Origin: Immundisolibacter sp.
GTDB taxonomy: Bacteria > Pseudomonadota > Gammaproteobacteria > Immundisolibacterales > Immundisolibacteraceae
Direction of reading: 5' to 3'
Length of the DNA: 64,000 nt
Assembly: GCF_014359565.1 (NCBI RefSeq)
Contig: NZ_JACIZD010000001.1
Coordinates: 620,001 to 684,000 of the forward strand
Shown here: piece after piece, positions 61,299 through 64,000 of the stretch
Layout: every line of letters starts with the position of its first letter
Position numbering within the stretch: position 1 is the first letter of the stretch
Position numbers and translations under genes: made by a program
Notes under the pieces: model-generated
What the model was told of the DNA's origin: nothing
What the model saw: the letters and a program-made list of their open reading frames with translations, nothing else
Databases searched by the model: none

Positions 61299-61374
61299 GG
61301 GCCGTTAGCTCAGTCGGTAGAGCAGCGGACTTTTAATCCGCGTGTCCTGGGTTCGATTCCCAGACGGCCCACCA
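61299..61374 (+). tRNA. tRNA-Lys (anticodon UUU)
   Basis: A 76-base tRNA ending in an encoded CCA. The acceptor stem GGGCCGT pairs with ACGGCCC, the anticodon loop is CTTTTAA, and the T arm GGGTTCGATTCCC is canonical. It is the probable attachment site of the element to its right: the GC content and gene type change immediately downstream. Confidence 0.97.
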
Positions 61375-61656: not shown

Positions 61657-61842
61657 ATGAAACGGACTCTGTGGAATACATCAGTCGCAGCGCAAGACCC
61701 CAGCCTAAAGAAGATTGTGCTTTCTATTGAGCAGAAAGCTAGGCTGACAAAAATCGTTTCTGATTCCATGGTTGATTATACGCGCCGTGACGCATCTAAG
61801 ACACCGCATGTTGTTGTCAAGAAAAGTACGGAGCGGAGCTAA
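61657..61842 (+). CDS. small hypothetical protein in tRNA-Lys-linked cassette
   Basis: A 61-residue protein, not recognised. It is basic and polar (14 Lys or Arg), with no signal or membrane segment. KKIVLSIEQKARLTKIVSDSM may form one helix. GGGGG lies six bases before the ATG. Codon use is AT-rich like the next gene, 26 bp downstream, so the two probably form an operon. An antitoxin, immunity or regulatory partner role is conceivable from size and position only. Confidence 0.55.
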   Translation: MKRTLWNTSVAAQDPSLKKIVLSIEQKARLTKIVSDSMVDYTRRDASKTPHVVVKKSTERS

Positions 61843-61868
61843 ATATAAAGTTTCTTCGGGCTGTTAAC

Positions 61869-63392
61869 ATGCGAAATTCTCTCCTAGTCTATAATTTGGA
61901 GAGTAGCCCGCTACGGCAGATGGATTTACCTCAAGCGAATTACATTCGAGGGTATTTGGCGGGCCTTCCTTCAGTTACTGTTGTGGAGGAGCCGAGTTAT
62001 TTCGATAAAGACTACCTCTCAGAATTTGCTAGCTTTTACTCGACTTCGGCTAGGTCTTATCCAAATATTTGTAGGCGTTGGCACTTCTTCTCTGGAGCGT
62101 CAATTTCACGAGATACTCTGCGCCGATTTGCAGCCGGTCAAAAGAAAACGCTTCGCAGGCTCCAAGAGTGCTATGTTGGATTTTCTGTCATTCGACCTAT
62201 CCCGTCGGCTCCATTCGGAAAAACTGTTCTCAAATGGTATCCTGATCAAGACTTGGATACGCCTCGCGTAACCAATCCATCGCGGCCATATCATGTTCAT
62301 CTCTTGGGTCAGGAGTTAACCGTGACCGGTCTCGCGTGGCAACAGCAGGATGTTGCGGTGGCGGCCTGTGCGACTGTAGGTCTGTGGACGATGTTTCAAT
62401 CTTCAGCGTTTGATGAGAATCACGCAATTCCAACCACTGCGGAGATTACAAAAAAGGCCAACTTGGGTTTTTCGGCTGGCAGGCGGATATTCCCAAGCAG
62501 GAGTCTTACTTGGGAGCAGATTAGTGAGGCCATCAAAGCATGTGATCTCTCCCCATTGGTGATTGACGGAGATATTGAAACGAACCATAGTGGGCGTGGC
62601 TTCTCAAAAAAATTGTTTGCCACTACCTGCGCGGCTTTTATTCGATCTGGCTATCCGGTCTTAATGTTGGGGCATATTCTCGGGGGTGGTGGGCATGCAA
62701 CTGTCGCAGTTGGGTTTCGTTCGCGTTTGTCAGATAAAGTAGCGCTGCCAAATGTCGTACCGCAAGATTCTAGTATTAATGTTATATATGTCAACGAGGA
62801 CAACGTTGGTCCTTATGTAAGAACGGAAATCGGGTTTGTTGACGAAGTTGACCAGCGCGAAGACCAGCGTGTTTGTCTTAGGGATCGGCCTCCAGCCTAT
62901 GCGCAGAATGCGGCTGCCATTGGGTATGAGTTTGTTCCTAGGCAGCTTATTTGTGGGGTTCATAATGATTTGAGAATGGGGCACGACCAGCTGCTTGGCT
63001 ATGCGGAGTGGCTTGCGGGGGTCTTTTCTCAGGTGCTTGAGGTTGCAAGCAGCGCGCGTGGTGTTCAGTATGATGGGCCACTTTTCTCAGCGCGATTTGT
63101 TCGGTTGGCCGACTATTTGGGTCAAGGGCTCAAAGAGCTATTGAGTGACGTGCCTGCTGTTCTATCGAAAGTACGGTTGGGCTTGGTGGAACACGTGCGG
63201 CCCATGCCCCTTTACATTGGGTTGATCAGAATAGGTTTAAGTGATTCGCATTCGTCAGTGCTTGCAGACATTCTTTTGGATACAACCGACACGGACCATA
63301 GTCCGACTACCGCTCTCGCGTTGGTTAGTTACTTGCCGCTAGTGTCCGCCTCTTTTCGGCAGTGGGCGATTCCTATTGTTGACGCATTTTAA
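61869..63392 (+). CDS. hypothetical protein with papain-like/C39-like peptidase features
   Basis: A 507-residue protein of unknown function with lower GC than its surroundings. Residues 158-171 (QQQDVAVAACATVG) give a Gln-rich patch and Cys167; GGGGHATVAVGFR gives His276; YVNEDNVGPY gives Asp311 or Asn312. The order Gln-Cys-His-Asp/Asn and the GHA-V-VG context fit a papain-like fold such as peptidase C39. The N-terminal 140 residues and the C-terminal 190 show no recognised domain. No signal peptide or clear membrane helix. It follows the 61-residue gene and converges on the phage replication gene. Confidence 0.6.
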   Translation: MRNSLLVYNLESSPLRQMDLPQANYIRGYLAGLPSVTVVEEPSYFDKDYLSEFASFYSTSARSYPNICRRWHFFSGASISRDTLRRFAAGQKKTLRRLQECYVGFSVIRPIPSAPFGKTVLKWYPDQDLDTPRVTNPSRPYHVHLLGQELTVTGLAWQQQDVAVAACATVGLWTMFQSSAFDENHAIPTTAEITKKANLGFSAGRRIFPSRSLTWEQISEAIKACDLSPLVIDGDIETNHSGRGFSKKLFATTCAAFIRSGYPVLMLGHILGGGGHATVAVGFRSRLSDKVALPNVVPQDSSINVIYVNEDNVGPYVRTEIGFVDEVDQREDQRVCLRDRPPAYAQNAAAIGYEFVPRQLICGVHNDLRMGHDQLLGYAEWLAGVFSQVLEVASSARGVQYDGPLFSARFVRLADYLGQGLKELLSDVPAVLSKVRLGLVEHVRPMPLYIGLIRIGLSDSHSSVLADILLDTTDTDHSPTTALALVSYLPLVSASFRQWAIPIVDAF

Positions 63393-63505: not shown

Positions 63506-64000
63506 TTATTGACAGTACTCCAAGGCCACTCGCGCTAACGCGCTTGTGGGTGAAAACTCCAGGTTTACGTTCTGAACAACGCGCCACTCGTGAAGTCGGG
63601 TTGGTACAGTGATTACGCCAGCCTCAACGCCGACTATCTGGTAACCAATCGGTTCGCCGTATAGGCCCAGCCGGTCTGACCAAGCGCGGGCCAGCGTGAC
63701 GTTGAGCTCTTTGCGCTGCACATAGGGGCCACCCAGGACTTCCACGAAGTCGGCCCAGCTTCCCGTGTCTGCTGCTTGTCTTGCCGCTTCGAGCACGCCT
63801 TCCGGCGCTTGCGCGATGCGGCGCAATTCGCGCCAGATGCTCACCGGCGGCCCGCCGATTTGCTGGAATTGTCGAATGCCCCAGGTGCTCGCCCAGGCTG
63901 TCACCCTCTCGGCGGCCGTTTGTCCGTCCTGCCCGGATTCGTCCTCGTCGATATAGGTGCCGTCCACGTTCTTCGAGACGTACTTGGCGACGTACCCGGT
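63506..64000 (-). CDS. P2 gpA-like phage replication endonuclease, C-terminal part (partial)
   Basis: The frame is open to the window edge; 164 residues are visible. It begins [14 protein letters not shown], the YxxxY tyrosine pair (codons 63992-63994 and 63980-63982) that nicks DNA in P2 gpA-type rolling-circle replication proteins. [19 protein letters not shown] and SIWRELRRI follow, as in that family from memory. The C-terminus past residue 100 is divergent. GC is higher than in the adjoining cassette. It marks the region as phage-derived. Confidence 0.85.

What the first reader, a model, noticed from the sequence alone, without database searches (positions are those of the whole stretch)
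61657..63392. Two-gene low-GC cassette between tRNA-Lys and a phage replication gene: candidate anti-phage or moron system
A 61-residue protein and a 507-residue papain-fold-like protein sit as a probable operon downstream of, and convergent with, a gpA-like gene. In phage P2 the defence genes tin and old lie downstream of gene A, so the place is one where defence cargo accumulates. Neither gene is recognised.
Basis: inference. Interest (0 to 1): 0.7.

Follow-up and report, generated by a model that had tools for sequence, protein, structure and literature searches.

The report
Mobile protease and small partner pair
Next to a tRNA gene this bacterium carries two foreign genes, one for an unrecognised papain-like protease and one for a small partner protein; the same pair recurs in dozens of bacteria on plasmids, prophages and defence islands, so it is probably an undescribed protease-based defence or conflict system, although no function has been tested.

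Summary
A 61-aa gene (61657-61842) and a 507-aa gene (61869-63392), 46-49% GC in a 66% GC window, lie between tRNA-Lys and a truncated phage gpA gene. A sibling genome with 97% identical flank lacks both. Pfam, NCBIfam, PADLOC and PHROGs give no credible match. The 507-aa protein belongs to a large patchy family (242 candidate stretches in genome contigs; 20 of 5426 E. coli genomes). Its AlphaFold model (pLDDT 92.8) is papain-like, and Gln160, Cys167, His276 and Asp311 are invariant in 75 relatives. The small gene is a real conserved partner: in leave-one-out profile searches it is the best-scoring ORF in 17 of 18 loci of the window's clade (the window's own E=0.0024); in 5-fold tests, in 51 of 64 others. 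Neighbours include ubiquitin-like conjugation operons (13 of 86 loci, at least six changes on the tree), type I RM, Fic, BREX and ABC-3C genes. Best reading: a mobile two-gene protease module, a soluble papain-like effector controlled by a co-encoded small protein, used in phage defence or inter-element conflict. Function, substrate and the small protein's role are inferred.

The parts
61299..61374 (+). tRNA-Lys (TTT), left border of the variable site
   Evidence: ARAGORN; the flank up to the tRNA is 97% identical in sibling genome G399, where different DNA follows the tRNA
61657..61842 (+). small partner gene, 61 aa; N-terminal 'TLW' motif and a C-terminal 'TP' segment shared with its clade
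   Evidence: ORF; top of 152 ORFs against a profile of relatives, E=0.0024; alignment
61869..63392 (+). papain-like cysteine protease gene, 507 aa
   Evidence: ORF; AlphaFold2 model pLDDT 92.8, pTM 0.93; staphopain Z 12.8 over 166 residues, ZUP1 11.7, UfSP2 11.6, C39 peptidase of PCAT1 11.4
62346..62348 (+). codon of Gln160 (predicted oxyanion hole)
   Evidence: invariant in the 75 sequences of A2
62367..62369 (+). codon of Cys167 (predicted nucleophile)
   Evidence: invariant in the 75 sequences of A2
62694..62696 (+). codon of His276 (predicted catalytic base)
   Evidence: invariant in the 75 sequences of A2
62799..62801 (+). codon of Asp311 (predicted third catalytic residue)
   Evidence: invariant in the 75 sequences of A2
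63506..64000 (-). 3' part of a truncated P2 gpA-like replication gene; continues outside the window to 342 aa in all (context, not part of the pair)
   Evidence: phrog_91 E=3.8e-54 in the window and 1.3e-121 for the 342-aa ORF, profile 335-621/852

Best explanation
It is a mobile two-gene module: an intracellular papain-like cysteine protease and a small partner protein encoded just upstream. Most likely the small protein binds the protease and keeps it inactive or selects its target, much as co-encoded staphostatin restrains staphopain or an antitoxin restrains a toxin. When a phage or competing element disturbs that complex, the protease is released and cleaves host or phage proteins, stopping the infection. 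Shown here: the conserved pairing, the papain-like model, the invariant catalytic residues, the mobile and defence-linked context, and presence/absence between sibling genomes. Inferred: that the protease is active, that the small protein controls it, what triggers it, and that the outcome is phage defence.
For: Pairing: an ORF of 45-90 aa with ATG and an SD-like site ends next to the start in 55 of 90 family members against 11 of 209 neighbouring genes (Fisher p=4e-25). Held-out profile searches rank the small ORF first in 17/18 (leave-one-out, window's clade) and 51/64 (5-fold, others) loci. Small and large proteins diverge together (Mantel r=0.64; largest of 500 permutations 0.10), and nearly all lack membrane segments. 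Catalysis: Q160, C167, H276, D311 invariant in 75 sequences; papain-like fold; Peptidase_C39_2 matched weakly by 7 of 75 members. Context: plasmids, P2-like prophage, E. coli tRNA-Pro island with integrase, relaxase and ABC-3C, E. coli R2 island with FRG, CbtA and restriction genes; neighbours matching E1-E2, type I RM, SoFic, AriA, RmrA, BrxC. Ubiquitin-like operons adjoin 13 of 86 loci, although Multi_ubiq occurs in only 14 of 398 same-phylum genomes. The pair is absent at the same tRNA in a sibling genome.
Against: No function was tested and no paper found describes the family. The small protein was modelled next to the protease only with low confidence (pLDDT about 50-77), and no coordinates or interface could be inspected. 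The PADLOC neighbour counts have no matched control. In one E. coli island the protease has lost its Cys and His, so catalysis may not always be needed or that copy is decaying. The recurrent link to ubiquitin-like operons may instead mean a role in that pathway. The window's small protein is a weak match to its own clade (11.6 bits).
Confidence: 0.5

Rival explanations
1. The protease is an accessory of bacterial ubiquitin-like conjugation (Bub or multiubiquitin operons): a second deconjugating or processing peptidase, with the small protein as adaptor. Stand-alone copies, as in the window, act on a system elsewhere in the genome.
For: E1/E2/ubiquitin-like operons beside 13 of 86 loci on at least six separate changes of the tree; a repeated layout of ubiquitin operon divergent from HTH-small-protease; the fold resembles ZUP1, UfSP2 and Mug105, which act on ubiquitin or UFM1.
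Against: About 85% of loci show no such operon in the DNA held; the window's genome has no Multi_ubiq match; staphopain and C39 peptidases match the fold as well or better; several of the operons encode an E1 protein with a JAB-like HSHP motif, which may already supply deconjugation (motif seen by eye).
Confidence: 0.2
2. It is a toxin-antitoxin style maintenance module of mobile elements: the protease is toxic, the small protein neutralises it, and phage defence is not its selected role.
For: Small gene first, short spacing, paired inheritance, plasmid and island locations.
Against: Frequent neighbourhood with defence genes and HTH-regulated ubiquitin-like operons; toxicity is untested.
Confidence: 0.17
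3. The small gene encodes a precursor peptide matured by the C39-like protease (bacteriocin or signal).
For: Fold kinship with C39 peptidases; a small gene next to a protease.
Against: GG occurs in only 5 of 82 small proteins; ABC_tran was matched by only 3 of 134 neighbour proteins scanned; the conserved segment is at the C terminus, not in a leader.
Confidence: 0.06

Closest known systems
Staphopain with co-encoded staphostatin inhibitor (C47 papain-like)
   Same: Best structural match of the protease domain (Z 12.8, 166 residues); a papain-like protease with a small co-encoded protein
   Different: Staphopains are secreted; this family is predicted soluble and intracellular, has extra domains, and its partner is 40-93 aa, shorter than staphostatin (secretion, staphostatin length and operon from general knowledge) and not shown to be related or inhibitory
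Peptidase_C39_2 / C39 peptidases
   Same: Papain-like fold; 7 of 75 members match PF13529 weakly (best E=9.9e-5)
   Different: The window protein does not match; the small partners rarely contain GG; ABC transporter genes are uncommon among the neighbours
ZUP1/UfSP-type proteases and Bub/multiubiquitin operons
   Same: Similar fold (Z about 11.7) and repeated adjacency to ubiquitin-like operons; Bub operons are described in PMC13373217
   Different: Most copies, including the window's, are not next to such operons; ubiquitin cleavage is untested
P2 tin/old cargo between gpA and the portal gene
   Same: In L099 the pair lies between gpA and portal/terminase genes

Membership tests
Papain-like cysteine proteases | Papain-like fold | tested here: met
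   AlphaFold2 pLDDT 92.8; staphopain Z 12.8, rmsd 3.1 over 166 residues
Papain-like cysteine proteases | Catalytic Cys/His/(Asp or Asn) plus upstream Gln | tested here: met
   Q160, C167, H276, D311 invariant in 75 sequences
Papain-like cysteine proteases | Proteolytic activity | not testable with these tools
   Needs purified protein
Peptidase_C39_2 (PF13529) | Match to the curated profile | tested here: not met
   No match for the window protein at E<=10; 7 of 75 relatives match weakly
Known anti-phage systems in PADLOC-DB v2 | Match to a system component | tested here: not met
   No match for either protein; only two isolated weak matches in 75 relatives
Two-gene defence or conflict system (works like) | Conserved co-occurrence of both genes | tested here: met
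Two-gene defence or conflict system (works like) | Mobile, defence-rich context and patchy distribution | tested here: met
   PADLOC counts lack a matched control
Two-gene defence or conflict system (works like) | Protection against phage | not testable with these tools
   Needs plaque assays
Bub / multiubiquitin operons | E1 and ubiquitin-like genes in the same locus | tested here: not met
   Met in 13 of 86 relatives; none among the window's neighbours read here, and no Multi_ubiq in its genome
Toxin-antitoxin | Toxicity of one protein neutralised by the other | not testable with these tools
   Needs expression assays
Staphopain-staphostatin | Partner homologous to staphostatin | not tested
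   The small protein was not compared with staphostatins; the fused model is low-confidence over it

The most novel reading that the evidence does not exclude
A widespread, undescribed bacterial immune module in which a papain-like protease is held by a small partner whose conserved C-terminal segment docks at the active site, and which has been coupled several times to ubiquitin-like conjugation operons: a prokaryotic counterpart of protease-guard immunity linked to ubiquitin signalling.
Probability: 0.2. Interest if true: 0.85.

Novelty: new variant of a known kind. Interest (0 to 1): 0.62.

Why it matters
If confirmed it adds a sequence-unrecognised protease family with a near-obligate small partner to bacterial immunity, present in E. 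coli and thus testable at once. Its repeated coupling to bacterial ubiquitin-like operons, whose role is unsettled (PMC13373217 says phage protection by Bub has not been demonstrated), would give that pathway a candidate effector or deconjugase.

Tried and rejected
Single-sequence scan of genome contigs: no relatives; the alignment-based scan succeeded. Phage records held no relative of the window protein or of L099. Sequence search of the PDB gave none. Active prophage: rejected for the window; only a gpA fragment and no integrase seen among the ORFs read here, and no copy of the tRNA-Lys 3' end in 50 kb downstream. Bacteriocin maturation: disfavoured. Housekeeping role: rejected; absent from the two same-genus genomes and nearly all of the 56 nearest relatives and from the same site in a sibling. 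Complex modelling used natural in-frame neighbours with the stop read as Gly; the small protein's placement was not confident. BFVD structure search: the top hit is a phage protein named papain-like (AvrRpt2), a fold match only. Literature searches found no description; the Gong 2025 and Ye 2026 Bub papers could not be read here, so prior mention there is not excluded.

Full report
Observation. GC is 46% and 49%, against 65.6% for the window, 63% for the gpA gene, 65% for the Fic gene and 72% for the methylase-like gene beyond it. The convergent gene is a truncated gpA relative covering only about positions 335-621 of an 852-position profile.

Mobility. A same-genus genome (G399) is 97% identical up to and including the tRNA-Lys and about 92-94% identical further downstream, but lacks the pair and most of gpA, Fic and the methylase gene; other DNA follows its tRNA. 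Neither of the two same-genus genomes carries the protease, and among the 56 nearest genomes searched only one fragment besides the window's own was found. In 398 same-phylum genomes 21 match. This is a variable tRNA-linked site, not a proven prophage: no copy of the tRNA 3' end was found in 50 kb downstream.

Family. Four profile libraries give no credible match for either protein. tblastn found four distant plasmid relatives. An alignment of these opened a large family: 300 pattern matches in genome contigs, 242 of them confirmed stretches, 80 loci kept, and six viral contigs. In the tree the window's clade holds Pseudomonadota, Myxococcota, Planctomycetota and Bdellovibrionota; phyla are mixed (33 changes for 18 groups), which suggests but does not prove transfer.

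The large protein. Q160, C167, H276 and D311 are invariant in 75 aligned members; among more divergent members nearly all keep them. The AlphaFold2 model has pLDDT 92.8 and pTM 0.93. Residues about 129-367 match staphopain (Z 12.8), ZUP1 (11.7), UfSP2 (11.6), phytochelatin synthase and C39 peptidases (about 11.4). Seven of 75 relatives match Peptidase_C39_2 weakly. Activity is inferred. One E. coli version has lost the Cys and His.

The small protein. An upstream small ORF meets strict criteria in 55 of 90 members and 11 of 209 neighbouring genes (p=4e-25). In held-out profile searches it ranks first in 17 of 18 loci of the window's clade (leave-one-out) and 51 of 64 others (5-fold); the window's own ranks first of 152 with E=0.0024. 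A C-terminal motif is present in 66 of 82, with a shuffled mean of 24 and maximum of 37; the motif was defined after looking at the alignment, so this is descriptive. Small and large distances correlate (Mantel r 0.64; permutation maximum 0.10). Windows of high hydropathy are absent from the small proteins and rare in the large ones.

Context. Four plasmids carry the pair, variously near caspase-like and helicase genes, multiubiquitin-ThiF-DUF6527 genes, or a TrlF ATPase gene. Thirteen of 86 loci adjoin E1/ubiquitin-like operons, with at least six changes on the tree. In several the layout is a ubiquitin operon divergent from HTH-small-protease. Multi_ubiq occurs in only 14 of 398 same-phylum genomes, so chance adjacency at this rate is very unlikely, though no exact expectation was computed. 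Other neighbours match type I RM, SoFic, AriA, RmrA, MADS, BrxC and others; these PADLOC counts have no matched control and some models are generic. L099, a P2-like prophage, has gpA, then the pair, then portal and terminase genes. Twenty of 5426 complete E. coli genomes carry a relative; of the four read, three have it in a tRNA-Pro island with integrase, relaxase and ABC-3C and one, strain R2, has it with FRG, CbtA and restriction genes.

Mechanism. The best reading is a protease effector with a co-encoded small controller, used in defence or inter-element conflict. Pairing, fold, catalytic residues and context are shown; control, trigger, substrate and outcome are inferred. A joint model made from loci where both genes share a frame left the small protein at pLDDT about 50-77, so its binding site is unknown. 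The ubiquitin link is the strongest rival clue and may turn out to be the true function.

Novelty. No paper found describes this family; two Bub papers could not be read (for one of them). Proteases in bacterial immunity are a known kind, so this is filed as a new variant of a known kind.

Noticed in passing
L009:3584-4789 (+), just beyond the window: Fic/DOC family gene next to the gpA remnant; most of it is missing in sibling G399
   Followed up: partly
L009:4918-8208 (-), just beyond the window: 1096-aa N6-methylase-like gene (type IIG restriction-modification by inspection); only its 5' end region is kept in sibling G399
   Followed up: partly
L134:14004-16052 (E. coli W2-5): Family member with the catalytic Cys replaced by Tyr and the His lost, still paired with a 54-aa gene: a possible pseudoenzyme
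   Followed up: partly
L115, L116, L118, L120, L124-L126, L131: Divergent members of about 800-1000 aa, with inserts or extra regions, mostly without a recognisable separate small ORF
   Followed up: no
L029, L017, L028, L036, L038, L039, L048, L051: Recurrent layout: E1/E2/ubiquitin-like operon divergent from an XRE-type HTH gene, the small gene and the protease
   Followed up: partly
L053:493-2058 (-): A second, very divergent family member in the same locus (43 bits)
   Followed up: no
L146:609-1379 (+): Unidentified 256-aa ORF occupying the position after tRNA-Lys in sibling G399
   Followed up: no
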